Origin: Roseomonas sp. HF4 | GTDB lineage: Bacteria > Pseudomonadota > Alphaproteobacteria > Acetobacterales > Acetobacteraceae | Length of the DNA stretch: 64,000 bases | Direction of reading: 5' to 3' | NCBI RefSeq assembly: GCF_005222755.1 | Contig: NZ_STGD01000016.1 | Coordinates: 1 to 64,000 of the forward strand | Part shown: positions 1,659-61,500 of the stretch, piece after piece | Layout of the letters: every line of letters begins with the position of its first letter | Numbering within the stretch: position 1 is the first letter of the stretch | The notes under the pieces: generated by a model | Told to the model about the DNA's origin: nothing | The model's database searches: none | What the model saw: only the letters and a program-made list of their open reading frames with translations | Translations under genes and position numbers: made by a program

Positions 1659-1790
1659 TTCGGCACAAGTGGATGCATGCCCGATCCCCGTCCCTTCCTT
1701 GTTACGTGGCGCCGGACCCCGAGGGATCGGCGCCAGGTGCCAAGGAAGGTTGTGGGGGCGGAGACGGGGGAGAAGTTCCCTTCTCCCCAG
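1659..1790 (+). repeat. Composite palindromic repeat, copy A
   Basis: Central inverted arms are 1693-1713 (CCTTCCTTG...TGGCGCC) and 1729-1749 (GGCGCCAGGTGCCAAGGAAG). They are followed by TTGTGGGGGC and a tail hairpin at 1766-1788, in which GGGGGAGAAG pairs with CTTCTCCCC. The flank from 1659 (TTCGGCACAAGTGG...GCCCGATCCCC) is shared with copy F at 40521. It lies downstream of the chimeric frame, 6 bp from the stop of the next minus-strand gene. The preceding 1515-1658 shows no gene that I can recognise. Confidence 0.8.
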
Positions 1791-1796
1791 GCCTTC

Positions 1797-2783
1797 TCAG
1801 CTGGCGTTGCTGCGCACCCGGTCCTCCGGGCCGATCAGGCGGAACGCCCAGGGGTCGGCCGCCTCGGGGTTCACCTCGACCACCACCGCGCGCGTATCGG
1901 CGGCGCCAGGCACCATGATGCGAGTCAAGTTCGGCGCCTCGGGCACCGGGCGGTCCTGCAGCCAGGTGTGGATGTCGCCATGGATGAGCAGGACGGGGCG
2001 ACCGAAGCCCGCGGCTTCGCGCGCCAGGGCAGCCCGCATGTCGCGGAATCCGCTCACCTGGCCGCGGCCGCAGCGGTCGGCGAAGTACATCTCGGCCTGC
2101 ATCGCGAGCACGACGGCGCGCGCCTCGACGCGCCGCGCCTCGGCGAAGACCGCGGCGAGCCAGGCACGATTGGCCGCGTCGCGCGCCTGGTATCCCTCCA
2201 TCGCCCCGGCGGGCGGGCGGGATGCGGGCGTCTCGCCGGCCTCGGTCGGCCGGTTGTTGTTGCTGCCGACCACGTGCAGCGTCGCGAACACCACACCCTG
2301 GTGTGTCCAGCGGGCATTCTCGACGAAGGGGCGGTACTGCGGGTCGGCATCGGCCTGGCGCGTCAGGGCCATGGGCCGGCCGAGGCTCGCGGCCGTCGCG
2401 AAGAAGCGCGCGCGGAGCAGCGCCAGCCGTTCCAGCGGGTCGAACCGCCCGCCGCGGTCCTGCCAGCAATCCGTCCATTCATTGTCGCCCGGCGTATAGA
2501 CCAGCGGGCGGTTCGCCAGCGCCATCCAGGAAAACGCGCGCAGCACGCGGTCATCCGTGCAGATCTCCGCCCCGCCCTTGGTGTCGCCCACGAACACCGT
2601 GAAGGCCGGGCGCGCGCCGTTGATCTCGCGCATCAGCGCGGCGACGCGGCCTTCCTCGGCCGGGCAGTCCTGCGGCCGGGCGGGACTGCAATAGGGCATG
2701 TCGCCGAAGGCGGCGAAGCGGAAGGGCTCGGCCGCGGCGGGCAGCGCCAGCAGGGCGAGGATCGGGAGCAGAAGGCGGCGCAT
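1797..2783 (-). CDS. Secreted calcineurin-like metallophosphoesterase
   Basis: A 328-residue protein. It starts MRRLLLPILALLALPAAAEP, a clear Sec signal peptide with an AxA cleavage site, so it should be periplasmic. Metal-ligand motifs typical of calcineurin-like phosphoesterases follow: FGDMPY near residue 30, VGDTKGG near 65, a GDNEWTDCW block near 100 in place of the usual GNHE, and a C-terminal IHGDIHTW. The substrate cannot be told from sequence; distant relatives act on phosphate esters or nucleotides. An in-frame ATG 117 bp upstream would hide the signal peptide, so ATG at 2783 is preferred. It is divergent from the DUF427 gene. A repeat copy lies just past its stop. Confidence 0.8.
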   Translation of the reverse strand: MRRLLLPILALLALPAAAEPFRFAAFGDMPYCSPARPQDCPAEEGRVAALMREINGARPAFTVFVGDTKGGAEICTDDRVLRAFSWMALANRPLVYTPGDNEWTDCWQDRGGRFDPLERLALLRARFFATAASLGRPMALTRQADADPQYRPFVENARWTHQGVVFATLHVVGSNNNRPTEAGETPASRPPAGAMEGYQARDAANRAWLAAVFAEARRVEARAVVLAMQAEMYFADRCGRGQVSGFRDMRAALAREAAGFGRPVLLIHGDIHTWLQDRPVPEAPNLTRIMVPGAADTRAVVVEVNPEAADPWAFRLIGPEDRVRSNAS

Positions 2784-2880
2784 CGGCGGGGTCCTGGTGA
2801 AAGGATGCACGATAGGGGGTAGCGGGCTGCGCGGCGTGGCGCCACCTCCGTCCTGTTGCAGTTCCGCGAGGAGACCGCCC

Positions 2881-3225
2881 ATGCCGCCCGCCATCGCCAT
2901 CGCCCCGCATGCCGGCCAGGTGCGGGTGCGCTTCGCCGGCCAGACCGTGGCCGAGACGACGCGCGCGCTGGTGATGCGTGAAGGCGCGCGCGCGCCGGTG
3001 CTCTACATCCCACGGGAGGATGCGGCGATGACGCTGCTGCAGCCGAGCACGCTCCGCACCACCTGCCCGTGGAAGGGGGATGCATCGTATTTCAGCATCG
3101 AGGCCGGCGGCCGGCGCGCCACGGACGCCGTCTGGTCCTACGAGGCGCCGCTGCCTGGCGTCGCCGCCATCGCCGGGCACCTCGCCTTCTACCCGGACCG
3201 CGTGGACGCCATCGAGGGCGCCTGA
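2881..3225 (+). CDS. DUF427 domain protein
   Basis: A 114-residue cytosolic protein of the DUF427 family, recognisable from [19 protein letters not shown], the [10 protein letters not shown] segment, [12 protein letters not shown] and the closing [15 protein letters not shown]. Family members form small beta-barrels; no reaction is firmly established. The start ATG at 2881 follows GAGGAGA at a normal distance; an open frame upstream of it carries no family sequence. It lies 46 bp before queA, so it may be co-transcribed with the queuosine genes, though nothing ties it to that pathway. Confidence 0.85.
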
Positions 3226-3271
3226 CCGCGCGGCGGTTGCGCGCGGCGCCGGCGCGGGCTACCCGCCCCCG

Positions 3272-4393
3272 GTGCCCGAGACCCCCCCGCCGCTCGCCAC
3301 CGCCGATTTCGACTTCGCCCTGCCCGAGGACCTGATCGCCCACGCCCCCGCGCGGCCGCGCGACGCCGCGCGGATGCTGGTGGTCGGCACCGCGGGGCTG
3401 ACCGATGCCGGCGTCGGCGATCTGCCGGGCCTGCTCCGCCCCGGCGACGTCATGGTGGTGAACGACACCCGCGTCATCCCGGCCCGCCTGCGCGCCCGCC
3501 GCGGCCAGGCGCGGATCGAGGTGATGCTGAACCGCGCCGAGGGCGGCGGCGTCTGGCATGCGCTGGTGCGCAACGCGCGCCGGCTGCGCGCCGGCGACGT
3601 GATCGCGGTGGACGGCACCGAGGGCTGCGCCGCGACGGTGATCGAGGCGCCCGAGGGCGGTGCCGTGCGGCTCGACTTCGGGCCGGACCAGGCGGCGCTC
3701 GCCGCCGCGCTGGACGCCGCCGGCGAAGTTCCGCTGCCCCCCTACATCTCCCGCCCGGACGGCCCGCGCCCCGAGGACGCGGCCGACTACCAGGCCATCT
3801 TCGCCGAGCGCCCCGGCGCCGTCGCGGCGCCGACCGCGAGCCTGCACTTCACGCCGGCGCTGCTCGCCGCCATCGCCGCGCGCGGCGTGGCGCGCGCGGC
3901 CGTGACGCTGCATGTCGGCGCCGGCACCTTCCTGCCGCTCCGCGCCGAGGACCCCCGCCAGCACCGCCTGCACGCCGAATGGGGCGAGATCACCGAGGAG
4001 GCCGCCGGCGCCATCAACGCCGCACGCGCGGCCGGCGGGCGGATCGTCGCGATCGGCACCACGGCGCTGCGGCTGCTGGAATCGGCCGTGGACGCGGACG
4101 GGCGCATCCATCCCTTCCGCGGCCTGACCGACATCTACCTGCTGCCCGGCCACCGCTTCCGCTCCGCCGACCTGCTGCTGACCAACTTCCACCTGCCGCG
4201 CAGCACGCTGTTCATGCTCGTCTCGGCCTTCGCCGGCACGGCGCGCATGAAGGCGGCCTATGCGCATGCCGTCACCGCGCGCTACCGCTTCTACTCCTAC
4301 GGCGATGCGACGCTGCTGGAGCGCGCGGATGACCGCGCGACGCTGCTGGAGCGCGCGGATGACCGCGCGACGCTGTTGGAGCGCACGGCATGA
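3272..4393 (+). CDS. queA: S-adenosylmethionine:tRNA ribosyltransferase-isomerase
   Basis: A 373-residue QueA. It transfers and isomerises the ribosyl group of SAM onto preQ1 in tRNA wobble position 34, giving epoxyqueuosine. Family blocks are clear: [22 protein letters not shown] at the start, [64 protein letters not shown], and a C-terminal [21 protein letters not shown] ending near [17 protein letters not shown]. The start is GTG 3272, fitting the family N-terminus. The last 27 residues come from a 30-bp tandem repeat ([10 protein letters not shown] units), so the tail is longer than usual. The stop overlaps the tgt start (ATGA). Confidence 0.96.
4310..4391 (+). repeat. 30-bp tandem repeat at the 3' end of queA
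   Basis: The unit GCGACGCTGCTGGAGCGCGC plus GGATGACCGC occurs twice in full and then partly, with one base change (CTGTTG) in the last unit. Being a multiple of three it keeps the frame and encodes repeated [10 protein letters not shown]. The copies are nearly identical, which suggests recent slippage or expansion. The final partial unit includes the queA stop and the overlapping tgt start. Confidence 0.9.
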
Positions 4394-5517
4394 CGCTGCG
4401 CTGGACCCGGGAGGCGACGGACGGCGCCGCGCGCGCGGGCGTTCTTCACACCGCGCATGGCGAAGTGGCGACGCCGGTCTTCATGCCCGTCGGCACCGCC
4501 GGCACGGTCAAGGCCATGACGGCGGACGCGGTGCGGGCCACCGGCGCGCGCATGGTGCTCGGCAACACCTACCACCTGATGCTGCGCCCGGGGGCGGAGC
4601 GCGTCGCGCGCCTCGGCGGGCTGCACCGGATGATGGACTGGCAGGGGCCGATCCTGACGGATTCCGGCGGCTTCCAGGTCATGTCCCTGTCCGGCCTGCG
4701 CAAGATGGACGAGCAGGGCGTGACCTTCCAGAGCCACATCGACGGCTCGAAGCACCGCCTGACTCCGGAACGCAGCGTCGAGATCCAGCGCCTGCTTGGC
4801 GCCGACGTGACGATGGTGCTCGACGAATGCACGCCCTTTCCCGCGACCGGGCAGCAGGCGGCCGACAGCATGCGCCTGTCCATGCGCTGGGCGGCGCGCT
4901 GCCGCGACGCCTTCGTGCCGCGCGACGGCCACGGGCTGTTCGGCATCGTGCAGGGCAGCACCTATCCGGACCTGCGCGCCGAGAGCGTCGATGCCCTGAC
5001 GCGCATCGGCTTCGAGGGCTATGCCGTCGGCGGTCTCGCGGTCGGCGAGGGCCAAGCGGCGATGTTCGCCGTGCTCGACACCACCGTGCCGCTGCTGCCC
5101 CGGGACAGCGCACGCTACCTGATGGGCGTCGGCACGCCGGCGGACCTGGTGGGCGCGGTCCGGCGCGGCATCGACATGTTCGACTGCGTCATGCCGACGC
5201 GCTCGGGCCGCACCGGGCGCGCCTACACCCGCCGCGGCGTGCTGAACCTCCGCAACGCCCGCCATGCCGAGGACAACGGGCCGCTCGACCCCGATTGCGG
5301 CTGCCCGGCGTGCCGGCGCCATTCGCGCGCCTATCTGCATCACCTGTTCAAGGCGGGGGAGATGCTCGGGCCGATGCTGCTGACCTGGCACAATATCCAG
5401 TATTACCAGGATCTGATGCGTGACCTGCGCGCGGCGATCCTGGCCGGCACATTCGAGGAGACGGCCGCGCGGATCGAAGCCGGCTGGCACACGCGCGAGG
5501 AGGAGACAGCGGCATGA
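4390..5517 (+). CDS. tgt: tRNA-guanine transglycosylase
   Basis: A 375-residue bacterial TGT, which exchanges guanine 34 for preQ1 in GUN-anticodon tRNAs. Seen in order: [27 protein letters not shown], the base-pocket block [44 protein letters not shown], the catalytic-Asp region [13 protein letters not shown], and a zinc site CGCPACRRH with a later histidine. Length is normal. Its ATG overlaps the queA stop and its own TGA overlaps the queF start, so translation is probably coupled across the operon. Confidence 0.97.
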
Positions 5518-5987
5518 GCGGCGCCCCCGACCACGAATACCACGCCCTGACGCAACTCGGCCGCCAGACCGCCCTGCCCGCGAGCCCCGAGGCCGCGGTG
5601 CTGGAGAAGGTGCCCGCGCCGCACCAGGGGCTGCGCTACTGCGTGCGCTTCACGGCGCCGGAATTCACCTCGCTGTGTCCGCTGACGGGCCAGCCGGATT
5701 TCGCGCACCTCGTGATCGACTACGTGCCGGGCGAATGGATCGTGGAGAGCAAGTCGCTCAAGAACTACCTCGCGTCCTTCCGCAACCACGGTGCCTTCCA
5801 CGAGGCCTGCACGCTGGATATCGCGCAGCGGCTGGTGGCGCTGCTGGCGCCCGTCTGGCTGCGGATCGGCGGCTACTGGTACCCGCGCGGCGGGATCCCG
5901 ATCGACGTGTTCTGGCAGAGCGGTCCCGCGCCGGAGGGGGTGTGGATCCCGGCGCAGGACGTGCAGCCTTATCGTGGGCGCGGGTGA
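5514..5987 (+). CDS. queF: NADPH-dependent 7-cyano-7-deazaguanine reductase
   Basis: A 157-residue unimodular QueF, reducing the nitrile of preQ0 to the amine of preQ1 with NADPH. The catalytic Cys55 lies in [13 protein letters not shown], with Asp62 just after it. The family signature [20 protein letters not shown] begins at Glu78 and binds substrate. Length matches the short cytosolic form. It overlaps tgt by four bases. Its stop is followed at once by a hairpin repeat that separates it from queG, the only loose junction in this operon. Confidence 0.96.
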
Positions 5988-5989
5988 AG

Positions 5990-6042
5990 GGCGCCGCCCC
6001 TCCGGACCACCCCGCCAAGGGCCGAAAGGCCTTTGGAAACCA
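5990..6042 (+). repeat. Hairpin repeat family 2, copy 1 (inside the que operon)
   Basis: Shares CCCTCCGGACCACCCCGCCA with a second copy at 26553-26603. It ends in a stem-loop, CCAAGGGCC-gaaa-GGCCTTTGG. It sits between queF and queG and is open in the queG frame back to GTG 5984. It could be read as an N-terminal extension of QueG, or it could act as a transcript-level spacer or attenuator. Confidence 0.75.
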
Positions 6043-6043
6043 C

Positions 6044-7078
6044 GTGCCGCGCGATGCCATCAGGCAGCAGGCCATGGCGCTCGGCTTCGATGCCGTGGGC
6101 TTCGCACGCGCGGAGCTGGCGCCCGAGATCCGCGACAGGCTCATGCACTTCCTCGGCGAAGGCCGCCATGGTTCGATGGGCTGGATGGCGGACCGCGCCG
6201 AGCAGCGCGCGAACCCCCGCGCGCTCTGGCCCGAGGCCGTGTCGGTCGTGGTGCTCGGCCTCAACTACGGGCCGGACGACGATCCACTGGCGACACTGGC
6301 GCAGAGCGACCGCGCCACCGTCAGTGTCTACGCGCAGAACCGCGACTACCACGACGTGGTCAAGAAGCGCCTCAAGGCGCTCGGCCGCTGGATGGCGGAG
6401 ACCTGGCCGGGCACGGGCATCAAGGTCTTCGTGGACACCGCCCCGGTCGCCGAGAAGCCGCTCGCGCAGGCCGCCGGGCTCGGCTGGCAGGGCAAGCACA
6501 CCAACCTCGTCTCCCGCGCGCTCGGCTCCTGGCTGTTCCTGGGCGAGGTGTTCACGACCCTCGACCTCGGCGCCGACGACGCCGAGGCCGATCATTGCGG
6601 CAGCTGCCGTGCCTGCCTCGACATCTGCCCGACCGCGGCCTTCCCCGCGCCCTACCAGCTCGATGCGCGGCGCTGCATCTCCTACCTCACGATCGAGCAT
6701 CGAGGGCCGATCGACCCCGCGCTGCGCCCGCTGATGGGCAACCGCATCTATGGCTGCGACGACTGCCTGGCGGTCTGCCCGTGGAACAAGTTCGCGCAGG
6801 CGCACAGCGAGCCCGCCTTCGCGCCGCGCGATGCCTTGCGCGCGCCGATGCTCGCGGACCTCGCGCGGCTGGACGACGCCGCCTTCCGTGCAATGTTCGC
6901 CGGCAGCCCGGTCAAGCGCATCGGGCGCGACCGCTTCGTGCGCAACGTGATGATCGCGGTCGGCAATTCGGGCGATGGCGCGCTGCGGCCGGTGGCGCAG
7001 GCGCTGTGCGAGGATGCCGACCCAGTGGTGGCCGAGGCCGCGCGCTGGGCCGTAGCGCGGCTGGAGGAGGCGACATGA
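6044..7078 (+). CDS. queG: Epoxyqueuosine reductase
   Basis: A QueG of 344 residues, a cobalamin- and [4Fe-4S]-dependent enzyme that reduces epoxyqueuosine to queuosine in tRNA. Visible: [12 protein letters not shown] near the N-terminus, [48 protein letters not shown], the first cluster [12 protein letters not shown], and a second [16 protein letters not shown] 6044 is chosen because [20 protein letters not shown] matches where homologues begin. GTG 5984 is also in frame but would translate the repeat element. The C-terminus looks like a short HEAT-like helical stretch. The stop overlaps queC. Confidence 0.93.
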
Positions 7079-9135: not shown

Positions 9136-9254
9136 AGGAAGGCGGGGGGAGAAGGGAACTTCTCCCCCCGGACCCTCCTCAACCTTTTGGCAGGATGGGC
9201 GCCAGGTGCCAAAGAAGGGAGGGGGTTTGGGGGAGGTTCCCCTCCCCCGACCTT
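9136..9254 (-). repeat. Composite palindromic repeat, copy B (inverted)
   Basis: Read on the plus strand it starts with the tail hairpin at 9144-9169 (GGGGGGAGAAGGGAACTTCT then CCCCCC). Next come AACCTTTTGG and GGCGCCAGGTGCCAAAGAAG of the central arms. It ends with the head hairpin GGGGGAGGTTCCCCTCCCCC at 9229-9248. This is the reverse order of copies A, C, G, H and I. Confidence 0.85.
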
Positions 9255-9258
9255 CCCC

Positions 9259-23995: not shown

Positions 23996-24168
23996 GGGGG
24001 AGGAGAACCTCCCCCGAACCGGCTCCCCGCGACGTTGCTGCGCAGCGCCGCAGGGACCCCAAGCCCTCCCTTCCTTGGCACTTGGCGCCCATCCTCGAAG
24101 GTAGGGCGCCAAAGGACTAAGAAGGTTGTGGGGGGTCCGGGGGGAGAAGTTCCCTTCTCCCCCCCCCC
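23996..24168 (+). repeat. Composite palindromic repeat, copy C (long form)
   Basis: The head hairpin GGGGGAGGAGAACCTCCCCC is at 23996-24015. It is followed by an extra block GCGACGTTGCTGCGCAGCGC...GGACCCC shared only with copy I, then the central arms (CCTTCCTTGGCACTTGGCGC and GGCGCCAAAG...GAAGG), then TTGTGGGGGGTCC and the tail hairpin. It fills the gap between two convergent genes, so it may double as a bidirectional terminator. Confidence 0.88.
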
Positions 24169-24169
24169 T

Positions 24170-25795
24170 TCACCCCCCGCCCGCGTTGCGCCGCGCGAGC
24201 CGCATCCCGGCGATGTACCCCCAGGCCATGTTCGGCCCGATCGTCGTGCCCGTGCCGACGTTGCGCGTGCCGATCGGGCTCGCCATGGCGATGCCGGCCG
24301 CGAACAGCCCCGGGATGACGCTGCCGTCCGGGCGCAGCACCTCGGCATGTTCGTTCGTCCGCGCGCCCCCCTTGGTGCCGAGGATGGCGCGGCTGATCGG
24401 CAGGGCGATGAAGGGCGGGTGGGCGATCGGCTCGATTCCCGCCCGTCGCCGCTTGTCCCCGGCGGCGGCGGCGTCCGGGCGCGCGGGGCGGCCGAACGCC
24501 TCGTCCCGCCCCGCGGCGGCCGCGGCGTTGAAGCCGGCCACGCTCGCGGCCAGCGCCGCCGGCGGCAGGCCGGTCAGCGCCGCAAGCCCCGCGAGGTCGG
24601 GCGATTCGCGCAGCCAGCCGGGATCGGCCCGCGCCGCCCAGCGCGCCGGCGGCAGGCGTTCCAGCAGCCGGGAATCGCTGATCACCCAGGCCGGCAGGTG
24701 GACCGGCGCGCCCGTCGCGGGGTCGCGCGCATCCAGCGCCTCGCCGATGTTGAACGTCAGCTCGCTGACGAATCGCACCCCGTGCCGGTTCACCAGCATG
24801 GCGTTCGGCTCGGTGTGGAACGGCACGGGCTGCGCCAGGATGCGGCCCTGGTAGCGGACGGGAATCGACGGCGCGATGGTCGCCTGGTCCATCCGCGCGA
24901 GCGCCGCACCGGCCGCGGCCGCCATGCGCTGCCCGTCGCCCTCGTTGCCCGAGGGACTGCCGAGGTAGTCCACCGGCCCCGGGAAATGCCGCGCGAGCAG
25001 CCCGGCCTCCCATTCGAAGCCGCCGGTCGCGATGACCACGCCGCGCCGCGCCGCCCACGCCTCCCGCCGCCCGGCGCGCTCGACCACGGCGCCGGTCACG
25101 GTGCCGTCGGGCGCCTGCGTCAGTTCCATGGCGCGGGCACCGAGGAACACCTCCACCCCCTGGTCGAGGCACCCGCGCAGCAGCCCCGTGACCAGCGCCG
25201 TCCCCTTGCCCCGGCTGTTGGTCAGCCACCGCCAGAGCAGACGCGGCCAGAGCGAAAGCGCCGTCCGATAGGGCTTGTGATAGAGGTCGGTCGTCACCGC
25301 CTCGTGGTAGGTGAAGATCTCGGGGATGGTGGACCGCCGGATCCGGCGCGCGAATCGCCCCGCCCGCCAGCGACTGAGCGCGCGGGGACTGAGCATCCGC
25401 CCCCGGTCCTTGGCGCCGGGCAGGCCGCGCAGCGGGTCGGGCTCGGGCGTCAGCGCGAATCGGAGCGGCGTCGCGGCCTCGACGAAGCGCAGCATCTCGG
25501 GCCCCGCGCGCAGGAAGGCCTGCCAGAGCGCATCCTCCTCCGCCGCCCAGCCGGGCGGCGCGCCGGCACGGACATAGGCGAGCGCCTCCTCGACGCTGTC
25601 CTCGATGCCGGCGGCGGCGGCGTGGTGGTTGGCCGGCACCCAGGTGCCGGCGCCCGACATGGCGCTGGTACCGCCCAGCCGGTCTGTCTTCTCCAGCACC
25701 ACCACCGAAAGCCCCTGCGCGGCCGCGGTCAGCGCCGCCGTCAGCCCCGCCGAGCCCGAGCCCAGCACCAGCACATCCGTCCGGAAATCCACCAT
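24170..25795 (-). CDS. FAD-dependent dehydrogenase, 3-oxosteroid dehydrogenase/fumarate reductase-like
   Basis: A 541-residue flavoprotein of the FAD_binding_2 family. The N-terminal dinucleotide fold reads VLVLGSGSAGLTAALTAAAQ, followed by VLEKTDRLGGTSAMSGAGTWVPAN, which resembles 3-ketosteroid delta-1-dehydrogenases. A middle substrate domain and the C-terminal FAD block GLFAAGIAMASPIG, with NVGTGTTIGPNMAWGYIAG, follow. There is no signal peptide. The substrate is not certain; steroid or other cyclic ketones are possible. It is flanked on both sides by copies of the composite repeat and has no operon partner. Confidence 0.85.
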   Translation of the reverse strand: MVDFRTDVLVLGSGSAGLTAALTAAAQGLSVVVLEKTDRLGGTSAMSGAGTWVPANHHAAAAGIEDSVEEALAYVRAGAPPGWAAEEDALWQAFLRAGPEMLRFVEAATPLRFALTPEPDPLRGLPGAKDRGRMLSPRALSRWRAGRFARRIRRSTIPEIFTYHEAVTTDLYHKPYRTALSLWPRLLWRWLTNSRGKGTALVTGLLRGCLDQGVEVFLGARAMELTQAPDGTVTGAVVERAGRREAWAARRGVVIATGGFEWEAGLLARHFPGPVDYLGSPSGNEGDGQRMAAAAGAALARMDQATIAPSIPVRYQGRILAQPVPFHTEPNAMLVNRHGVRFVSELTFNIGEALDARDPATGAPVHLPAWVISDSRLLERLPPARWAARADPGWLRESPDLAGLAALTGLPPAALAASVAGFNAAAAAGRDEAFGRPARPDAAAAGDKRRRAGIEPIAHPPFIALPISRAILGTKGGARTNEHAEVLRPDGSVIPGLFAAGIAMASPIGTRNVGTGTTIGPNMAWGYIAGMRLARRNAGGG

Positions 25796-25830
25796 GCGCC
25801 GTCATCGCGCCGTGGGCGCCGTGCGGCAAG

Positions 25831-25890
25831 GGGGGGGGGAGAAGGGAACTTCTCCCCCCGCGCCCCCCTCAACCTTTTTTGGGACCCGGG
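25831..25890 (-). repeat. Composite palindromic repeat, copy D (partial)
   Basis: The tail hairpin (GGGGGAGAAGGGAACTTCTC then CCCCC) is followed by CTCAACCTTTTTTGGG, the beginning of the central arm, after which homology stops. Inverted orientation. The rest of 25891-26051 shows no gene. Confidence 0.75.
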
Positions 25891-26051
25891 GCGGGGCTGC
25901 GGGCCAGGGATCATGCGGCCGGCGGCGACAGCGCAGGTGAGGACGCGCTTCACCCCCATGGACCGCACCGATCGCCGCCATCCGCCGGCTTGATTGGCGC
26001 CGCCACGCGCGCGGGCGCAAATGACCGCCAGCAGCAACGAGGACCCGCGCC

Positions 26052-26537: not shown

Positions 26538-26552
26538 GGCGCAACCGGAGAG

Positions 26553-26603
26553 GCATCGCCCCTCCGGACCACCCCGCCAAGGGCTTCAGGCCCTTGGAAC
26601 CCC
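26553..26603 (+). repeat. Hairpin repeat family 2, copy 2
   Basis: CCCTCCGGACCACCCCGCCA followed by the perfect stem-loop CCAAGGGC-TTCAG-GCCCTTGG. It lies in the gap between the convergent VOC and ABC-F genes, where it may act as a terminator for either. It matches the element inside the que operon at 5990. Confidence 0.8.
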
Positions 26604-26617
26604 CGACATGGCGGCCG

Positions 26618-36172: not shown

Positions 36173-36255
36173 GAGGTGCTCCCTTCCAGAAGCGGATGCG
36201 CCCCGGTGGGGGGGCGTGGCCCGGGCGGAGGGTTACGCCCGAAGCCCCGGCTCGA

Positions 36256-39016: not shown

Positions 39017-39033
39017 GGTCACTCCGTAAGACC

Positions 39034-39060
39034 GGGGGGAGCAGGGAACTTCTCCCCACG
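39034..39060 (-). repeat. Composite palindromic repeat, copy E (tail hairpin only)
   Basis: GGGGGAGCAGGGAACTTCTC then CCC, the tail hairpin with one changed base and none of the central arms. It lies between thiD and the end of the decayed recombinase. Confidence 0.65.
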
Positions 39061-39064
39061 GTTT

Positions 39065-39582
39065 TCACTTTGCCGAAACGTCGAGCATGGCGGCGAGGCG
39101 TGAGGCAAGGGTGTCTTCCTCGGGGGCCAGGCCGGCCGCGCCGGCCTCGAGCATCGCCATGAGGGTGCCCGGTCAGTTCGATGCCGGGCAGACCGCCGGG
39201 ATCGTCGGTCGGCGAGACGACGACGGTGTCGATCAGGGCACGGGCGGCCTCGAGGGCTTCGGCGCCGCCCTCGGCGGCGATGGCGTGGCGGAGATCGGCG
39301 TAGACCTGCGCGAGGTCGGGGTGCAGCGCCGGCGGGGCGACCGGCGGCCCGGCATCGAGCGCGGCCTGCCGGTCTCGCTGCCGGGCCTCGGTACCGGCGG
39401 AGGCTTCGGCCGCCAGGCGGTTCGATTCCGCGATGAAGGTCGCGCAGAATTCGGCCACCCGGTCCGGCCGCATCTGCTGCGTCCCGCGCGCCCGGAACGG
39501 CACAATCTGCCGGCGACGACGGAGATGCATCCGGCCATCGTCGGCGCCAGACGGCGGCATCAGATCCGCGCGGCAACGCCGA
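39065..39582 (-). pseudogene. Decayed serine recombinase C-terminal region
   Basis: On the minus strand one frame reads RVAEFCATFIAESNRLAAEA, a break, then PPALHPDLAQVYADLRHAI, ALEAARALIDTVVVSPTD and PGIELTG. This is the usual C-terminal region of large serine recombinases (coiled coil, LHP segment, final IEL-G strand). After ELTG the frame breaks near 39160-39172. The expected ending, MAMLEAGAAGLAPEEDTLAS and on to a stop at 39065-39067, continues in another frame. The central coiled coil seems shortened, and upstream only a garbled zinc-ribbon-like trace (CISVVAGRLC) remains before the next gene. The catalytic domain is missing. Confidence 0.65.
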
Positions 39583-40377: not shown

Positions 40378-40520
40378 GTGCGTTCCCTCCGTGTTCAGCC
40401 CCGGGGCCCGGCGACGGGACATACGCCCCTGCCGTCGAGCCGCCCACCGGCACGACACCATCGCCGTCCCGGATCCGAACGACCAGGGCTCCGCACCACG
40501 TCAGGCATTCGGGACGGGAA

Positions 40521-40652
40521 TTCGGCATAAGTGGCTCCCTGCCCGATCCCCCTGCCTTCCTTGTCGCCTGGCGCCACGCCTCGAGGCATCCGCGCCCGGT
40601 GGCAAGGAAGGGGTCCCCCCCCCCGGGGGGGGGAGAAGTCCCCTTCCCCCGC
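40521..40652 (+). repeat. Composite palindromic repeat, copy F
   Basis: Begins TTCGGCATAAGTGG...GCCCGATCCCC, as in copy A. The central arms CCTTCCTTGTCGCCTGGCGC and GGTGGCAAGGAAGG are followed by a G/C-rich stretch and a degenerate tail hairpin (GGGGGAGAAGTCCCCTTCCC). It accounts for much of the 320-bp gap 40378-40697. The remainder, 40378-40520, should hold the SDR promoter and shows no gene. Confidence 0.8.
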
Positions 40653-40697
40653 GCTCTTTGTCGCTCGCGCCCGGCGCCGCAGCCGAACCGTGCGATC

Positions 40698-44453: not shown

Positions 44454-44497
44454 CCTCAGGCGCCGGCGCCTTTATTGTGACCTCAGGCACCGGCGCC
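44450..44497 (+). repeat. 21-bp direct repeat overlapping the patatin stop
   Basis: GTGACCTCAGGCGCCGGCGC(C) at 44450-44470 recurs at 44477-44497 with one change (GGCACC). The period is 27 bp and the patatin stop lies in copy 1. The rest of 44498-44631 is G/C-rich with small hairpins and no gene. Confidence 0.8.
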
Positions 44498-44522
44498 CGC
44501 ATCCGCGGGCTTGGCTTTCGCG
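44495..44522 (+). repeat. Small hairpin repeat family 3, copy 1
   Basis: GCCCGC-ATCC-GCGGGC followed by TTGGCTTTCGCGCC. A close match (GGGCCGC-ATCC-GCGGCCC then TTGGCTTCGCC) is at 56246-56275. It lies between the patatin and methyltransferase genes. Confidence 0.55.
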
Positions 44523-44631
44523 CCGCGCGCGGGCGCTCCGGCAGCGACGCGCAGGCTGGGCGCGGTCGCGCTTCGCGCTCCCGGATCGCGGCGTTGCCTC
44601 GATCCGAAGGGATCGCGCACAGGATGAGGCC

Positions 44632-45402: not shown

Positions 45403-45412
45403 GAAGAACGGT

Positions 45413-45540
45413 GGGGGGGGGGGAACCTCCCCCGAGCCCCCTCCCTTCTTTGGCACCTGGCGCCGGTCCGGGAAGGCCGGGCGCCGAGTGCCAAAGAAGG
45501 TTGTGGGGGGTCCGGGGGGAGAAGTTCCCTTCTCCCCCCG
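45413..45540 (+). repeat. Composite palindromic repeat, copy G (best preserved)
   Basis: Head segment GGGGGGGAACCTCCCCC. The central arms are 45444-45464 (CCTTCTTTGGCACCTGGCGC) and 45480-45500 (GCGCCGAGTGCCAAAGAAGG), nearly perfect inverted repeats. TTGTGGGGGGTCC and a perfect tail hairpin follow. It separates the methyltransferase gene from the sirtuin and ends about 45 bp before the sirtuin start. Confidence 0.9.
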
Positions 45541-45583
45541 CCCTTCCTCGACAAGGCGCCCCTCCCCCGCCAGACTCAGTCCC

Positions 45584-56009: not shown

Positions 56010-56190
56010 AGGTCGCGGGAGGGGAACCTCCCCCGATCCGGGACCCTGCGACGTGGCTGCGCAACGTCGCGAGGACCCCGAGCCCTCCCGTCTTTGCCAC
56101 TCGGCGCCCGACCTTCCGCGACCGTCGCCGGGTGGCAAGGAAGGTTGAGGGGAGTCCGGGGGGAGAAGTTCCCTTCTCCCCCCGTCCTTC
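56010..56190 (+). repeat. Composite palindromic repeat, copy I (long form)
   Basis: Head hairpin (GGGAGGGGAACCTCCCCC), then the extra block GCGACGTGGCTGCGCAACGT...GAGGACCCC also seen in copy C. The central arms are decayed (TGCCACTCGGCGCC and GGTGGCAAGGAAGG), followed by a perfect tail hairpin. It covers the first half of the 348-bp gap 55997-56344. Confidence 0.87.
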
Positions 56191-56245: not shown

Positions 56246-56275
56246 GGGCCGCATCCGCGGCCCTTGGCTTCGCCG
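56246..56275 (+). repeat. Small hairpin repeat family 3, copy 2
   Basis: GGGCCGC-ATCC-GCGGCCC then TTGGCTTCGCC, matching 44495-44522. The rest of the gap to 56344 includes further short GC hairpins and no gene. Confidence 0.55.
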
Positions 56276-56344
56276 GACAACCGGCGGACCGCAGTCGCGG
56301 CCTCGGCCCTTCGGGCCGAACGTCGGAACTTCGTGCGCCTGGTA

Positions 56345-57322
56345 TCAATCGTCGAAGCGCAGCCCGCGCGCCCGGATCAGCGCCGACCACTTCTCCGCCT
56401 CGCCGCGCAGATGCGCCTCGGCGGCCGGGATGTCGGAGCCCGACGCGCCCACGAAGCCCACCTCGGCCACGCGCGCCACCACGTCCGGCTGCGCCAGCGC
56501 GTGCCGCGCCGCGGCGTTGAGCCGGCGGATGGCGGGCTCGGGCGTCGCCGCGGGCACCCACCACATCACCCAGGAATTCGCCTCGAACCCCGGCGCCACG
56601 CTCTCGGCCATGGTCGGCATGTCGGGCAGCACGGGCACGCGCTGGGCGGTGTTCGCCGCCAGCGCCTGGAGCGCGCCGCCCCGCACCTGGCCGAGTGCCG
56701 CCGGCATGTCGGCGAACATGAAGTCCACCACCCCGGCGCGCAGGTCCGTCAGCCCCGCCGCCGTGCCGCGGTAGTTCACCAGGGTGAAGTCGGCGCCGGA
56801 CAGGCTCTGGTACAGCACGGCGGCCAGCTGGTGCGGCGTGCCGGGCCCGCCCGTCGCCGCCTTGAAGTGGCCCGGGCGCGCCTTCACCTGGCGGTCCCAG
56901 TCGCGCACGTCGGCGAACAGGCCCGGTCGCGCCACCAGCACGAAGGGCGTCGTCGCCAGCAGCGAGACCGGCTTGAAGTCGGCCAGCGCATAGCCGGGCT
57001 CGCGCATCATGAACGGCGCGATGACCGAGGAAATGGGCGCCAGCAGCACCGTGTGCCCGTCCGGCGCCGCGCGCGCGACCGACCGCGTGCCGACGGCGGC
57101 GCCGGCGCCCGGCCGGTTCTCGACGATCATCTGCTGGCCGAGGAAGCCCTGCATGTGCGGCGCCATGACGCGCGCCAGGATGTCGGGCGACCCGCCGGGC
57201 GCGAAGGGGTTGATCAGGCGGATGGTCTCGCGCGGGGACCAGTCCTGCGCGCGGGCGGCGCGCGGCGCCAAGGGCAGCAGGGCGGCGGCGGCGAGTGCGG
57301 CGCGGCGGGTCGGTCGGATCAT
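56345..57322 (-). CDS. Bug-family tripartite tricarboxylate transporter receptor
   Basis: A 325-residue periplasmic binding protein with a twin-arginine-like signal (MIRPTRRAALAAAALLPLAP). Bug features: ETIRLINPFAPGGSPDILAR, MIVENRPGAGAAVGTRSVA, ATGGPGTPHQLAAVLYQSL, VNYRGTAAGLTDLRAGVVDF and PDMPTMAESVAPGFE. It is clearly different from the other Bug protein here (start at 22990), so this is not a recent duplication. No tct permease gene adjoins. The ligand is unknown. It diverges from the PBP gene across 131 bp. Confidence 0.92.
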   Translation of the reverse strand: MIRPTRRAALAAAALLPLAPRAARAQDWSPRETIRLINPFAPGGSPDILARVMAPHMQGFLGQQMIVENRPGAGAAVGTRSVARAAPDGHTVLLAPISSVIAPFMMREPGYALADFKPVSLLATTPFVLVARPGLFADVRDWDRQVKARPGHFKAATGGPGTPHQLAAVLYQSLSGADFTLVNYRGTAAGLTDLRAGVVDFMFADMPAALGQVRGGALQALAANTAQRVPVLPDMPTMAESVAPGFEANSWVMWWVPAATPEPAIRRLNAAARHALAQPDVVARVAEVGFVGASGSDIPAAEAHLRGEAEKWSALIRARGLRFDD

Positions 57323-57453
57323 GGATCAAGGCTTCCCAGGCTGGGCGTGAAGCGTGTCGGCGTTCTTGGCCGGCGGGCCGGCGCGCGAGAGGTTGGCCCG
57401 CGTTGCCCTCGGAACAAGGGCCGCGCCCATGTCCGCCGCGCACCGGCCATGCT

Positions 57454-59292
57454 ATGCAGACCGCAATGCCCCGTGCCGTCGCGCCGCGGGTGCGGCCCGC
57501 CCCCCGCGCCGCCCCCGCCCGACCTGCACCCCCCGCCCGCCGACGGCCCCGCCTGGGGACGCGCCTGTTGCGCTGGGCGGTCATCCTCTCGGTCTGGGGG
57601 ATGGTCGCGGGCTTCCTCGCCCTGCTCTGGTTCGCCTGGGACCTGCCGCGGCCCGAGGATGCGCTGGGCGCCACGCGCCGCCCCTCGGTCACGATGCTGG
57701 CGGCCGACGGCGCGCTGCTCGCCACGAGCGGCGACCTCTATGGGGAGACGGTGCGGCTGCGCGACCTGCCAGCGCATCTGCCGGCCGCCTTCGTCGCGAT
57801 CGAGGACCGACGCTTCCGCGACCATGCCGGGCTCGATGTCATCGGCGTCGCGCGCGCGCTGGTCGCGAACCTGACCGCCGGGCGGGTGGTGCAGGGCGGC
57901 TCCACCATCACGCAGCAGCTCGCCAAGAACCTGTTCCTGACGCCGGAACGCAGCCTGCGCCGCAAGGTGCAGGAGGCGCTGCTGGCGCTCTGGCTGGAAC
58001 ACCGCTTCAGCAAGGATGAATTGCTGACGATCTACCTCAACCGCGTCTATCTCGGCGCCGGGACCTTCGGCGTCGATGCCGCCGCGCGGCTCTATTTCGG
58101 CGTGCCGGCGCGCGGGCTGTCCATCGCGCAATCGGCGGTGCTGGCGGGGCTGCCGCGGGCACCCTCGCGGCTCAATCCGCGCGTGAACCCCTCGGCCGCC
58201 GTCGGCCGCGCGGTCGAGGTGCTGGACGCCATGGCCGAGACCGGCGCCATCACCGCCGCCCAGGCGCTCACCGAGGCCGAGCGCATCCGCTTCGCGCGCC
58301 CGCCGTCGCGCGATGCCGGCTGGTTCGCCGACTGGGTGCGGGATGGCCTGGCGGAGCGCGCGCCGCCCGGCACCGACCTGCTGCTGCGCACCACGCTCGA
58401 CACGCGGCTGCAGGCGGCGGTGGAGGCACGGATCGAGGCGCTGCTGGCCGGCCCCGGCCGTGCCGCCGGCGTCGCGCAGGGCGCGGTCGTCGCGATGGAG
58501 GCCGCGACGGGCGCGGTGCGCGCCATGGCGGGCGGGCGGGACTACCGCAGCAGCCCCTTCAACCGCGCGACCCAGGCGCGGCGCCAGCCGGGCTCGGCCT
58601 TCAAGCCCTTCGTGTTCCTGGCGGCACTCGAGGCGGGCGCGACGCCGGACGATGAGGTCTCGGACGCGCCCGTCTCGCTGGGCGGCTGGGCGCCGGGCAA
58701 TGGCGCCTGGCGCGCACGCGGCGCGATCACGCTGGAGGACGCGCTGGCCCATTCGGTCAACACCGCGGCGGTGCGCATCATGCAGCGCGCCGGCGGGCCG
58801 CGCGCGGTGGCGGCCAGCGCCGGGCGCGCCGGGCTGCCGGGGCCGCTGCCGCGGGAAGCCTCGATCGCGCTCGGCACGGCGGAGGTGACGCTGCTCGACC
58901 TCGTCGCCGGCTATGCGCCCTTCGCGAATGGCGGCAACCGCGTGGCGCCCTTCGGCATCGCCGAGGCACGCGCGGAAGGCCGCGCCGTCGCCTGGCTGCC
59001 GGCGGCCCCTGCCCCGGCCATCGCGCCGGAACACGCCGCGGCGATGCTCCGGATGCTGGGCGCCGTGGTCGCGCGCGGCACGGGGCGCGCGGCGTCGGTG
59101 CCGGGTCTTGCGGTGGCCGGCAAGACCGGCACGACGCAGGACAACCGCGACGCCTGGTTCATCGGCATCGCGGGGGGCCTCGTGATCGGCGTCTGGCTCG
59201 GCAACGACGATGCGCGGCCGATGGAGGGCGTCGCGGGCGGCGGCCTGCCCGCGCGGCTGTTCCGCGAGATCCTGGAGGCCGCGCGGGGGTAG
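57454..59292 (+). CDS. Class A penicillin-binding protein (PBP1-type)
   Basis: A 612-residue bifunctional cell-wall synthase. After a basic, proline-rich cytosolic start, one transmembrane helix (AVILSVWGMVAGFLALLWFA, about 41-60) anchors it. The GT51 glycosyltransferase domain has AIEDRRFRDHAGLD, GGSTITQQLAKN and FSKDELLTIYLNRVYLG. The transpeptidase domain has the SxxK motif in GSAFKPF, SVN (SxN) and KTGTT (KTG). It is shorter than PBP1a and close to PbpC-like/PBP1-type proteins. It starts at ATG 57454, or possibly 57466. Confidence 0.94.
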   Translation: MQTAMPRAVAPRVRPAPRAAPARPAPPARRRPRLGTRLLRWAVILSVWGMVAGFLALLWFAWDLPRPEDALGATRRPSVTMLAADGALLATSGDLYGETVRLRDLPAHLPAAFVAIEDRRFRDHAGLDVIGVARALVANLTAGRVVQGGSTITQQLAKNLFLTPERSLRRKVQEALLALWLEHRFSKDELLTIYLNRVYLGAGTFGVDAAARLYFGVPARGLSIAQSAVLAGLPRAPSRLNPRVNPSAAVGRAVEVLDAMAETGAITAAQALTEAERIRFARPPSRDAGWFADWVRDGLAERAPPGTDLLLRTTLDTRLQAAVEARIEALLAGPGRAAGVAQGAVVAMEAATGAVRAMAGGRDYRSSPFNRATQARRQPGSAFKPFVFLAALEAGATPDDEVSDAPVSLGGWAPGNGAWRARGAITLEDALAHSVNTAAVRIMQRAGGPRAVAASAGRAGLPGPLPREASIALGTAEVTLLDLVAGYAPFANGGNRVAPFGIAEARAEGRAVAWLPAAPAPAIAPEHAAAMLRMLGAVVARGTGRAASVPGLAVAGKTGTTQDNRDAWFIGIAGGLVIGVWLGNDDARPMEGVAGGGLPARLFREILEAARG

Positions 59293-59330
59293 TTCCGGCG
59301 GTCGGTTTCATCCCCGCCCACGCGCGCCGG

Positions 59331-59400
59331 CCCTTCCGGAACGGGCGCCAGGTGCCAGAAAAGGGAGGGGGCCTCGGGGGAGGTCCTCCTCCCCCCACCT
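59331..59400 (-). repeat. Composite palindromic repeat, copy J (partial)
   Basis: One central arm (GGCGCCAGGTGCCAGAAAAG) and the head hairpin (GGGGGAGGTCCTCCTCCCCC), in inverted orientation; the tail module is missing. It lies between the PBP and EamA genes. Confidence 0.78.
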
Positions 59401-59518
59401 TCCGGGCGGCCGCCCGTGCCAGCCCCGCACCCCCCGCATCCCTGTCCTCGCGCCGCCGCGCCGATGGCGGCGCGGTTCCGCCTTCCGCCCGCCGCATCCC
59501 GGGGCGATGCTGCGGCCG

Positions 59519-60385
59519 ATGCCTCCCGCCCTTCTCGGTGTCGCGCTGCAACTGGCGGCGCTCGCGACCTTCGTCGCCATGGACACCGTCATCAAGCTGC
59601 TGACGGCGGGCTTTCCCGTCTCGCAGATCATGTGGGCGCGCTTCGTCTTCGGCTTCCTGGCGGTGGCGCTGGCGCTGCGCGTACTGGCCGGGCGCGTGCC
59701 CTGGCGGTCGCATGCGCCGGGGCTGCAGACGCTGCGCAGCCTGATCCTCGCGGTCTGCAACCTGCTGTTCACCATCGCGCTCGTGCATATCCCGCTGGCG
59801 GATGCGACGGCCGTCGGTTTCGCCTCCCCGCTGCTGACGGTCGCGCTGGCGGCGGTCTGGCTCAAGGAGAAGGTCGGGTGGCGGCGCTGGGCGGGGGTCG
59901 CGATCGGGCTCGGCGGCGTGGTGGTGCTGCTGCGCCCGCCCTTCCTGTTCGCCGGGGAGCCGGTGCATTGGGCGATGCTGCTGCCTCTCGGCACCGCGGC
60001 GCTGTTCGCCGTCTACCAGATCCTGACGCGCAAGCTGGCGGCGGTGGACGACCCGCGCACCACCATCCTTCACACGAGCTTCGCGGCGGGGCTCGTCACC
60101 TCCGCCGCGCTGCCGTTCGACTGGGTCTGGCCGAGCGCGGGCGGCTGGGCCGCGCTCCTGCTGCTCGGCGTGCTGGGCGGCGCGGGGCACGGGCTGCTCG
60201 TGATGGCCTTCGCCCGCGCCCCGGCCAGCCTGCTGGCGCCGATGTCCTACACGCAGATGATCTGGGCCGTGCTCGCGGGGCTCATGGTGTTCGGCGACGT
60301 GCCGGACGGGCTCACCCTCGCCGGCATGGCGGTGATCGCGGCGGGCGGCGTGCTGGTCGCGCTGCCGGACCGGGCGCGACGGTGA
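59519..60385 (+). CDS. EamA-family (DMT) transporter
   Basis: A 288-residue membrane protein with about ten helices in two EamA repeats. It begins LLGVALQLAALATFVAMDTV, with TLRSLILAVCNLLFTIALVH and PLLTVALAAVWLKEKVGWRR closing the first repeat. The second ends LMVFGDVPDGLTLAGMAVIA. Family members export amino acids or metabolites; the substrate is not known. The start is uncertain: ATG 59519 is used, with ATG 59507 in frame. The 180 bp to the next gene (60386-60577) contain no recognisable gene. Confidence 0.88.
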   Translation: MPPALLGVALQLAALATFVAMDTVIKLLTAGFPVSQIMWARFVFGFLAVALALRVLAGRVPWRSHAPGLQTLRSLILAVCNLLFTIALVHIPLADATAVGFASPLLTVALAAVWLKEKVGWRRWAGVAIGLGGVVVLLRPPFLFAGEPVHWAMLLPLGTAALFAVYQILTRKLAAVDDPRTTILHTSFAAGLVTSAALPFDWVWPSAGGWAALLLLGVLGGAGHGLLVMAFARAPASLLAPMSYTQMIWAVLAGLMVFGDVPDGLTLAGMAVIAAGGVLVALPDRARR

Positions 60386-60577
60386 GCGCGGGCTGGGCAC
60401 CGCCGGTGCCGGGAAGCGCGGGCCGATCGGGCGCGGGCGGGCGGCGCATGGCGGGATGGCGTGCGAACCGCTTGCGCCGCTCCCGCCGCTGCTTTACCGA
60501 ACACGCTCGCGCGTGGCGGCCCTCCGGCGCCCGGCGACTCGCGGCCCCGTTGCATCAGGCCGCGCATGAGGGACGCG

Positions 60578-61282
60578 ATGGCTGACATCGGACTGGCGAA
60601 GGGCGCCGAGGAGCGCGGGCACGCGCGGGCGGCGCTCGACGCCCACAGCGTGCGCGAGGCGTATCGGCGCTGGGCCGGGGTCTATGACACCGTCTTCGGC
60701 GGCGTCTCGGGCTTCGGGCGGCGGCGCGCCGTCGCGGCGGTCAACCGCATGGCCGGGCCGCGCGTCCTCGAAGTGGGCGTCGGCACCGGCCTCGCTTTGC
60801 CGCTCTATCGCCGCGATCTGCAGGTGGTCGGCATCGACCTGTCGCGGGAGATGCTGGAGAAGGCCAAGGAACGCGTCGCGGCGGAACGCCTGACGCATGT
60901 CCGCGGCTTGCTCGAGATGGACGCCGAGCGCATGGCCTTCGCCGACGGCGCGTTCGACATCGCGGTCGCGATGTTCACCGCGAGCGTGGTGCCCGACGCC
61001 AAGCGCCTCTTCGCCGAGATGTCGCGGGTGGTGCGCCCTGGCGGCCACATGCTGTTCGTCAATCATTTCGCGGCCGAGGGCGGTCCGCGCTGGTGGGTGG
61101 AGCGCGCCATGGCGCCGCTGTCGCGCCGGCTCGGCTGGCATCCGGATTTCGCGCTACGCGACCTGCTCGACCCCGCGATCACGCCCGTGGACAGTTTCGA
61201 GCCCTGCCCGCCGGCAGGGATCTTCACGCTGCTGACGATGCGCACGCCGGAAGCGACGCCGCAGGCGCTCGCGGCGGAGTAG
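60578..61282 (+). CDS. Phosphatidylethanolamine N-methyltransferase-like (PmtA type)
   Basis: A 234-residue SAM methyltransferase. The opening YRRWAGVYDTVFGGVSGFGR, RRAVAAVNRMAGPRVLEVGV with the GTGLALPLY motif, and VVGIDLSREMLEKAKERVA match PmtA-type enzymes, which make phosphatidylcholine from PE in alphaproteobacteria. MLFVNHFAAEGGPRWWVERA follows. A related quinone or lipid methylase is possible. ATG 60578 is preferred because GAGGGA precedes it; ATG 60566 is also in frame. No neighbour is clearly related. Confidence 0.87.
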   Translation: MADIGLAKGAEERGHARAALDAHSVREAYRRWAGVYDTVFGGVSGFGRRRAVAAVNRMAGPRVLEVGVGTGLALPLYRRDLQVVGIDLSREMLEKAKERVAAERLTHVRGLLEMDAERMAFADGAFDIAVAMFTASVVPDAKRLFAEMSRVVRPGGHMLFVNHFAAEGGPRWWVERAMAPLSRRLGWHPDFALRDLLDPAITPVDSFEPCPPAGIFTLLTMRTPEATPQALAAE

Positions 61283-61445
61283 CCGGCAGGGACGGGGAAG
61301 CCGAGCCTCCTCCGACCCTGTCCCTGCTGTCCTCGCTTTCCCGGCCGTGCCAACGGCCGCATCCTTCGATACCCGGCATGTTCCCGCACCGGCCGTCAGG
61401 CGCAAGGCAGCCGGCGGCGCTCATCCCGGCACCCGGCATCGATGC

Positions 61446-61500
61446 CCGGGGGGCAAGGAAGGTCGAGGCGGATGCGCGGGGAGAAGTTCCCGTCTCCCCC
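61446..61500 (+). repeat. Composite palindromic repeat, copy K (partial)
   Basis: The right central arm (GGGGGCAAGGAAGG) and the tail hairpin (GGGGAGAAGTTCCCGTCTCC) with two changes; the head module is missing. It lies between the convergent pmtA-like and ankyrin-like genes. The rest of 61283-61528 has no gene. Confidence 0.72.

What the first reader, a model, noticed from the sequence alone, without database searches (positions are those of the whole stretch)
1659..61500. A composite three-hairpin palindromic repeat present about eleven times in 64 kb
Full copies have a head hairpin (GGGGGAGG-AGAA-CCTCCCCC), long central inverted arms (CCTTCTTTGGCACYTGGCGC and its complement), a TTGTGGGGGGTCC link, and a tail hairpin (GGGGGAGAAG-TT-CCCTTCTCCCC). 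Copies occur in both orientations at about 1.66, 9.1, 24.0, 25.8, 39.0, 40.5, 45.4, 52.0, 56.0, 59.3 and 61.4 kb, nearly all at gene ends and none within a confident gene. Such density, modularity and lack of coding content suggest a REP/MITE-like element that is or was mobile, perhaps recruited as a terminator or mRNA-stabilising structure.
Basis: seen in the sequence. Interest (0 to 1): 0.75.

Follow-up and report, generated by a model that had tools for sequence, protein, structure and literature searches.

The report
Stop-codon hairpin repeats hosting recombinase transposons
A bacterium's genome carries a couple of hundred or more copies of a folded DNA repeat parked close to where genes stop, and some of these copies appear to have been used as landing sites by mobile elements that carry DNA recombination enzymes.

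Summary
In detail: all 11 window sites match a covariance model, and the genome has 210 head and 145 tail hairpins against 0 in reversed controls. The genus is Neoroseomonas. The repeat is a 140-bp REPIN/BIME-like composite palindrome, two conserved inverted end units around a variable central stem. In a 464-kb sample 0 of 38 sites lie inside genes; 21 are convergent, 16 tandem, 1 divergent. Relatives show empty sites, so copies were inserted. No target duplication, no RAYT in this genome, no within-genome arm covariation and no terminator call at copies scanned; a 3'-end role is inference from position. New: serine recombinases, mostly in Tyr-Tyr-Ser trios, end at these hairpins (17 of 19 against 53 of 418 gene ends). 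At one locus both junctions of a recombinase-bearing insert lie inside an orthologous repeat, though only a decayed serine recombinase was detected in it. Window copy E is a decayed case. Best reading: REPIN-like elements at gene ends, probably used as 3' structures, and serving as landing pads. What moved them is unknown.

The parts
1655..1797 (+). copy A: alternative 5' module, central stem and tail hairpin; convergent gap
   Evidence: R1 77.5 bits; context
9137..9255 (-). copy B: full copy between tandem genes; orthologous copy in N. nitratireducens (L064)
   Evidence: R1 110.8 bits; ortholog
23996..24171 (+). copy C: head hairpin, extra palindromic module, centre, tail; convergent gap
   Evidence: R1 99.8 bits for 24046-24171; sequence
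25827..25913 (-). copy D: tail unit only; the one divergent-gap case
   Evidence: R1 40.3 bits; context
39027..39078 (-). copy E: tail hairpin only, upstream of thiD (name from my reading of the protein); full repeat at the orthologous site in N. eburnea (L124) and N. soli (L138)
   Evidence: R1 22.3 bits over 39027-39155; orthologs
39047..39533 (-). decayed C-terminal part of a large serine recombinase gene ending at hairpin E
   Evidence: tblastn; junction; DNA match
40504..40660 (+). copy F: alternative 5' module, centre and tail; orientation taken from sequence, model scores 32.7 (+) and 32.8 (-)
   Evidence: sequence
45407..45546 (+). copy G: full copy right after a TGA stop; gap empty in 8 of 13 relatives
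   Evidence: R1 155.6 bits
51950..52090 (+). copy H: full copy, convergent gap
   Evidence: R1 126.1 bits
56008..56190 (+). copy I: head, extra module, centre, tail; convergent gap
   Evidence: R1 82.8 bits for 56062-56190; sequence
59289..59402 (-). copy J: head hairpin and one central arm
   Evidence: R1 31.3 bits
61403..61507 (+). copy K: degenerate copy, tail best preserved; convergent gap
   Evidence: R1 21.6 bits, E 0.022

Best explanation
A REPIN/BIME-like dispersed element of Neoroseomonas. Two inverted, nearly invariant end units, each a hairpin plus an arm, flank a variable central stem. SHOWN: copies were inserted into tight gene junctions beside stop codons. The central stem differs in kind between species. 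Large serine recombinase genes, most of them the third gene of a Tyr-Tyr-Ser recombinase trio, end at a terminal hairpin of such repeats, and at one locus both junctions of the insert lie inside an orthologous repeat. INFERRED: the repeat was spread by an unidentified enzyme and homogenised within species; it is kept at gene ends because it is harmless there and probably useful as a bidirectional 3'-end structure (termination or protection of mRNA ends); and the recombinase elements use the terminal hairpins as preferred landing sites.
For: Copy number and controls. Conserved ends against variable centre. Placement by available bases: convergent 17 observed, 4.3 expected; divergent 1, 7.3 expected, of 31 sites at 30 bits or more. 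Hairpins 4-10 nt from a stop codon at 83 of 140 measured ends (own genome 23 of 64, others 60 of 76). Gap at window G empty in 8 of 13 relatives, and at several C1 sites. Centre type: GTC(A/G)GT in 1 of 36 own copies of standard length, 12 of 13 eburnea, 7 of 8 soli. N. marina C12 against N. eburnea: 5,855 bp inserted, repeat sequence on both sides. G018:C3 against G021: both flanks found about 19 kb apart around an intact trio, with family II type hairpins at the uninterrupted site. 17 of 19 recombinase 3' ends at a repeat-type hairpin, 53 of 418 ordinary gene 3' ends. At 7 of 9 informative recombinase loci another species has a full or partial repeat at the orthologous site.
Against: No transcript data. 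No terminator call at the five copies scanned. No covariation of arms within the genome. No target duplication. If a junction is drawn at random and then a point inside it, closeness to stop codons is not significant (490 of 5000 simulations). In the N. marina insert only a decayed serine recombinase, no tyrosine recombinase, was detected. The recombinase was not found at E 1e-30 in 5 of 16 repeat-carrying genomes and was found in 2 of 18 non-carriers. Orthologous sites of L239 and L276 show no repeat, and for L236 one of two other species has none.
Confidence: 0.64

Rival explanations
1. Purely selfish or neutral repeats: an enzyme inserts them anywhere, and only insertions between stop codons survive in this gene-dense genome. 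Gene-end placement is then a survival filter and the copies do nothing.
For: Junction-weighted null reaches the observed closeness to stops in 490 of 5000 simulations; arms vary without compensation within the genome; no clear orientation preference in tandem gaps (9 along, 7 against the genes, my count).
Against: Convergent gaps are about fourfold over-represented by available bases and divergent gaps depleted; head and tail hairpins stay mostly 92-100% identical while the centre varies; at one orthologous convergent gap (site 8) several other species carry other hairpins, one of them, similar to the head hairpin, followed by seven T.
Confidence: 0.35
2. The repeats are internal-deletion derivatives (MITEs) of the recombinase-carrying transposons, which mobilise them in trans.
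For: Recombinase 3' ends abut the same kinds of terminal hairpin, class by class; recombinase in 11 of 16 repeat carriers and 2 of 18 non-carriers, Fisher p 0.001 without correction for relatedness.
Against: At N. marina C12 the insert has repeat sequence on both sides, and its hairpin carries the same extra-C variant as the full repeat of N. eburnea at that site, so the hairpin belongs to the target. No repeat-type hairpin (stem of 9 or more) was listed in up to 2.6 kb held upstream of nine trios.
Confidence: 0.12
3. Classical REP/BIME mobilised by a RAYT (Y1) transposase.
For: Architecture of inverted hairpin doublets with variable spacer, as REPINs.
Against: PF01797 absent from this genome and from all repeat carriers among 34 genus genomes; no GTAG or CGTC tag at the hairpin foot in the consensus.
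Confidence: 0.06

Closest known systems
REPINs (Bertels and Rainey 2011, PMC3116915; abstract and first part of section 10 read)
   Same: inverted doublet, conserved ends, less conserved hairpin-forming spacer, extragenic, hundreds of copies
   Different: each end unit holds its own hairpin; unit about 140 nt; no RAYT found; no within-genome compensatory changes; hairpin ends used by recombinase elements
GTAG/CGTC REPs (PMC3733652; start of abstract and one passage seen)
   Same: palindromic extragenic repeats
   Different: no such tag in the consensus; the passage seen states CGTC repeats are missing in Acetobacteraceae
BIME and RIME mosaic elements (recalled)
   Same: modules combine in mosaics; here one chimera of two repeat families was seen
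   Different: sequence not compared by any tool
REPs as targets of insertion sequences (PMC1525189; search listing with start of abstract only)
   Same: a mobile element uses the palindromic repeat as insertion target
   Different: here the inserts carry serine recombinases, mostly in Tyr-Tyr-Ser trios, and lie beside a terminal hairpin
RIT elements and Tn554-like transposons (PMC3414803; passages seen)
   Same: three overlapping recombinase genes (RIT), or one long and one normal tyrosine recombinase (Tn554-related)
   Different: the third enzyme here is a large serine recombinase

Membership tests
REP with RAYT | Y1/RAYT transposase in the genome | tested here: not met
   PF01797: 0 in own genome; 1 of 34 genus genomes, a non-carrier; 5 of 14 control genomes ring, E. 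coli and Caulobacter among them
REP with RAYT | GTAG or CGTC tag at the hairpin foot | tested here: not met
   consensus of 30 copies has GAAGGTC at the head's foot
REPIN | inverted doublet of conserved units around a variable hairpin-forming spacer | tested here: met
   column identities over 52 own copies; folds of six copies
REPIN | compensatory changes in the spacer hairpin | tested here: inconclusive
   none within the genome (31 distinct 56-nt centres, 2303 of 5000 shuffles reach the value); across relatives (29 centres) 28 of 5000 with G-T pairs counted, 334 of 5000 without; relatedness not removed, centres of other lengths dropped
MITE | terminal inverted repeats | tested here: met
   copies match themselves on the opposite strand at 69-75% identity over most of the element (25 such places); inverted end units seen
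MITE | target-site duplication | tested here: not met
   70 copies with eight species labels against shuffled flank pairs, words of 3-6 bases
MITE | autonomous partner sharing both ends | tested here: inconclusive
   recombinase elements share only the hairpin on the recombinase side, which at one locus is inherited from the target repeat
intrinsic terminator | U-tract after a G+C-rich stem | tested here: not met
   scan of 44-64 kb lists none of the five copies there; flanks after the tail of 70 copies show no common T run
Rfam RNA families | match at gathering threshold | tested here: not met
   only the serC leader hits, elsewhere in the window
RIT element (for the inserted trio) | three tyrosine recombinases | tested here: not met
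   trio of L242, the only one run against Pfam: PF00589 above cut-off in ORF1; PF00589 below its cut-off (21.6 against 27.1 bits) in ORF2; PF00239, PF07508 and PF13408 in ORF3

The most novel reading that the evidence does not exclude
Hundreds of composite hairpins parked beside stop codons form a genome-wide array of safe landing pads for a family of Tyr-Tyr-Ser recombinase-trio transposons. Two sequence-unrelated three-hairpin repeat families each serve particular recombinase lineages. Placing the pads at gene 3' ends spares host genes, so host 3'-end structures and mobile elements would have co-evolved.
Probability: 0.47. Interest if true: 0.78.

Novelty: new variant of a known kind. Interest (0 to 1): 0.62.

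Why it matters
It offers a REPIN-like repeat without the expected RAYT enzyme, placed beside stop codons, with empty sites that show insertion, and a recombinase family whose integrations can be read against orthologous repeats. It makes testable whether short hairpin repeats at gene ends are maintained as 3'-end structures, as safe targets for mobile elements, or both. A serine recombinase with a multi-copy target at gene ends would also interest those who look for integration tools.

Tried and rejected
RAYT search: none in carriers. Target duplications: no signal; relatives are only about 80-90% identical, so very short duplications could not be judged from empty sites. Plasmid and phage collections: no match. 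I first took the recombinase trio for the autonomous parent of the repeats (note) and dropped that after the junction comparison. Hairpins upstream of nine trios: none of the repeat type listed. For the insertions in G021:C23 and G020:C26 the far flank was not recovered: G020:C12:366000-378000 matched G021:C23:243500-314000 only on the recombinase side, and the G020:C26 and G021:C1 stretches turned out to run in the opposite direction to the one I had assumed. The head half of repeat E was sought at the own glmM 3' end and not found. One DNA hit of the hairpin-recombinase query (C1:556899) was fetched as L237 and gave no recombinase by tblastn (for other own stretches). Of 13 places printed, twelve end in a hairpin and one (L238b) is an internal recombinase fragment without one. 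In the scripts, L140 and L141 were labelled as own; they are Paeniroseomonas aquatica and N. nitratireducens; one search repeats the placement counts with right labels. Six relatives' copies counted 'inside' are hits that overlap the edge of a called gene. Hits dropped before the count of 38: two weak places (E 0.13 and 0.18) and the second-strand or part hits of counted places; two of the 38 lie in one gap (C1:208736 and C1:208886).
Full report
OBSERVATION. The central arm named in the finding occurs 10 times in the window at up to three mismatches, with 0.01 expected. Thirty best blastn copies from the same 5.35-Mb genome were oriented and aligned. Whole-genome pattern counts give 210 heads and 145 tails at up to two mismatches, with 0 matches for the reversed patterns. 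The R1 search of the genome scored only 150 of 4147 candidates and all 150 matched; some are the same site on both strands. In window plus C1:1-400000 (464 kb) there are 38 sites at E up to 0.022, 11 and 27; 31 reach 30 bits. Some low scorers (C1:82357, C1:177730, C1:351330) belong to a second family of the same three-hairpin plan.

ANATOMY. Over 52 own copies, the head hairpin with the adjoining CCCCCTCCCTTC, and the AAGGTTG-GGGGGG link with the tail hairpin, are mostly 92-100% identical, apart from one loop position (53%) and a few spacer columns. The central stem falls to 46-66% at 13 positions. Copies match themselves on the opposite strand at 69-75%, so the element is a doublet of inverted end units around a spacer that folds. 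Compact centres (28-29 nt) occur in marina, oryzicola and nitratireducens, and one eburnea copy has other sequence nested in the centre. Predicted RNA folds of six window copies have z from -2.8 to -6.2. Pairing of the two central arms is no better within a copy than between copies of this genome (31 centres; 2303 of 5000 shuffles); across relatives it is weakly better (29 centres; 28 of 5000, or 334 of 5000 without G-T pairs). Within the genome the arms thus pair by descent, not by visible compensation.

WHO HAS IT. By R1, 16 of 35 same-genus genomes and 0 of 24 from other families of the class carry it, with stricter filters and 55 candidates scored per genome. In a draw of 299 family genomes (10 candidates scored each), 33 genomes from 14 of 102 genera match; outside the window's genus only two genera have hits below 1e-20. 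The species of the window itself is not named by any search.

PLACEMENT. With a home-made gene caller, 0 of 38 sites lie in genes; 21 are convergent (in 20 gaps), 16 tandem, 1 divergent. By available bases 17 convergent sites are seen for 4.3 expected, 13 tandem for 19.4 and 1 divergent for 7.3, among the 31 stronger sites. In a set of 131 copies from nine genomes chosen by model score, 65 are convergent, 50 tandem, 0 divergent, 10 at a locus edge and 6 overlap a gene edge; the hairpin starts 4-10 nt from a stop codon at 83 of 140 measured ends, 23 of 64 in this genome and 60 of 76 in the others, with four ends of the others overlapping. A base-uniform null gives 4.6 of 30 sites within 15 nt against 22 observed, but a junction-weighted null gives 18.0 (490 of 5000 reach 22). 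The closeness to stops may therefore follow from short junctions. Convergent junctions without the element are mostly short; those with it measure 136-348 nt.

INSERTION HISTORY. At window G, 8 of 13 relatives have the flanking genes overlapping with no element, 3 have the element after the same TGA, and 2 have about 2 kb between the genes; one of these (G015, L169) includes an R1 match. Own C1 junctions with elements correspond to gaps of 1 and -4 nt in N. oryzicola. The centre is of a species-typical kind: GTC(A/G)GT in 1 of 36 own centres of standard length, 12 of 13 eburnea, 7 of 8 soli, but mixed in rubea, alkaliterrae and marina. Two orthologous sites show this difference. It points to homogenisation within species or repeated insertion. 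No target duplication was detected in 70 copies, and no RAYT was found.

RECOMBINASES. Two solitary heads in the genome share 284 bp starting exactly at the element edge and running into a serine recombinase gene. A DNA search showed the same junction at several places, including window E. At 12 recombinase 3' ends found with that hairpin-containing, hence biased, query a hairpin follows. In a protein search of 34 genus genomes that did not include the hairpin, 30 loci were inspected. Of 19 distinct ones that reach residue 498 or beyond at 51% identity or more, 17 end at a hairpin: eight of the family I kind (one of them, L275, degenerate) and nine of the family II kind. L253 and L272 do not, nor do the more distant hits, several of which end at a tRNA gene (tRNA from my reading of the sequence). 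Ordinary gene 3' ends show such hairpins in 53 of 418 cases. In a tree of 20 recombinases hairpin class follows clades with a few switches. TyrA, TyrB and serine recombinase are all present at nine loci (L241, L242, L276, L278-L283) and partly at others; frames overlap or abut in the two whose frames were listed.

DIRECTION OF THE LINK. N. eburnea L114 carries a full repeat. In N. marina the two flanks of that locus lie 5,855 bp apart, and both junctions fall inside the repeat...GGTTCGGGGG before the insert and GGGGGAGGTTCACCCTCCCCC after it, the latter with the same unusual extra C as in eburnea. The hairpin thus belongs to the target. That insert holds a decayed serine recombinase; no tyrosine recombinase was detected in it. 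A second case has both flanks located: G018:C3, about 19 kb with an intact trio, against a G021 site with family II type hairpins; its junctions are less exact. Window E has a recombinase remnant and one tail hairpin where eburnea and soli have a full repeat between glmM and thiD (gene names from my reading). In all, of 21 recombinase ends examined plus window E, 9 have an informative relative, and 7 of these show a full or partial repeat there (L222, L236, L242, L277, L280, L285, window E); L239 and L276 do not. For L236 one relative has the repeat and another does not. This is insertion into repeats, as reported for insertion sequences and REPs (PMC1525189, listing only), and not evidence that the recombinases move the repeats.

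FUNCTION. The mechanism I commit to is a bidirectional 3'-end structure: a strong hairpin just after the stop codon of one or both genes that halts polymerase or blocks 3' exonucleases. It rests on position and on what look like replacements: at site 8 other species carry other hairpins in the same convergent gap, one, similar to the head hairpin, followed by seven T. Against a canonical terminator, no T run follows the copies scanned. The literature searches listed no paper whose title or abstract start describes this repeat or a Tyr-Tyr-Ser trio. The lists were cut at 10 to 20 rows and most subscription papers are not held, so this is weak evidence of novelty.

Noticed in passing
C1:177730-177886, C1:82357-82513, C1:351330-351468; partial in window 26538-26617: A second, sequence-unrelated three-hairpin repeat family with the same plan (head GGAGGGGCCTTGCCCCTCC, centre around AAAGGCC/GGCCTTT, tail GGGAGGGGCAGCGCCCCTCCC); a chimera with family I at C1:129182-129335.
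   Followed up: partly
window 44454-44620: A further intergenic repeat family with many copies in the genus, in tandem in G028.
   Followed up: no
L047:10494-10628: Another repeat family of about 130 bp with several copies in this genome and relatives.
   Followed up: no
window 2-103 (minus): Fragment of a large serine recombinase at the start of the contig; other contigs of the genome also begin or end in such genes, which suggests multi-copy elements that break the assembly.
   Followed up: no
L202, L211, L215, L216, L219: Variant family I repeats whose second hairpin is of a shorter type, close to GGGGGAGTTCACTCCCCC.
   Followed up: no
window 36173-36226 (minus): serC leader (RF00517), E 1.2e-05.
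   Followed up: no
window 4307-4396: Tandem 30-nt repeat, two identical copies and a third at 77%.
   Followed up: no
L167 (G003:C4): The window-G ortholog in N. eburnea has a long stretch of other, repeat-like sequence nested in the centre of the element.
   Followed up: no
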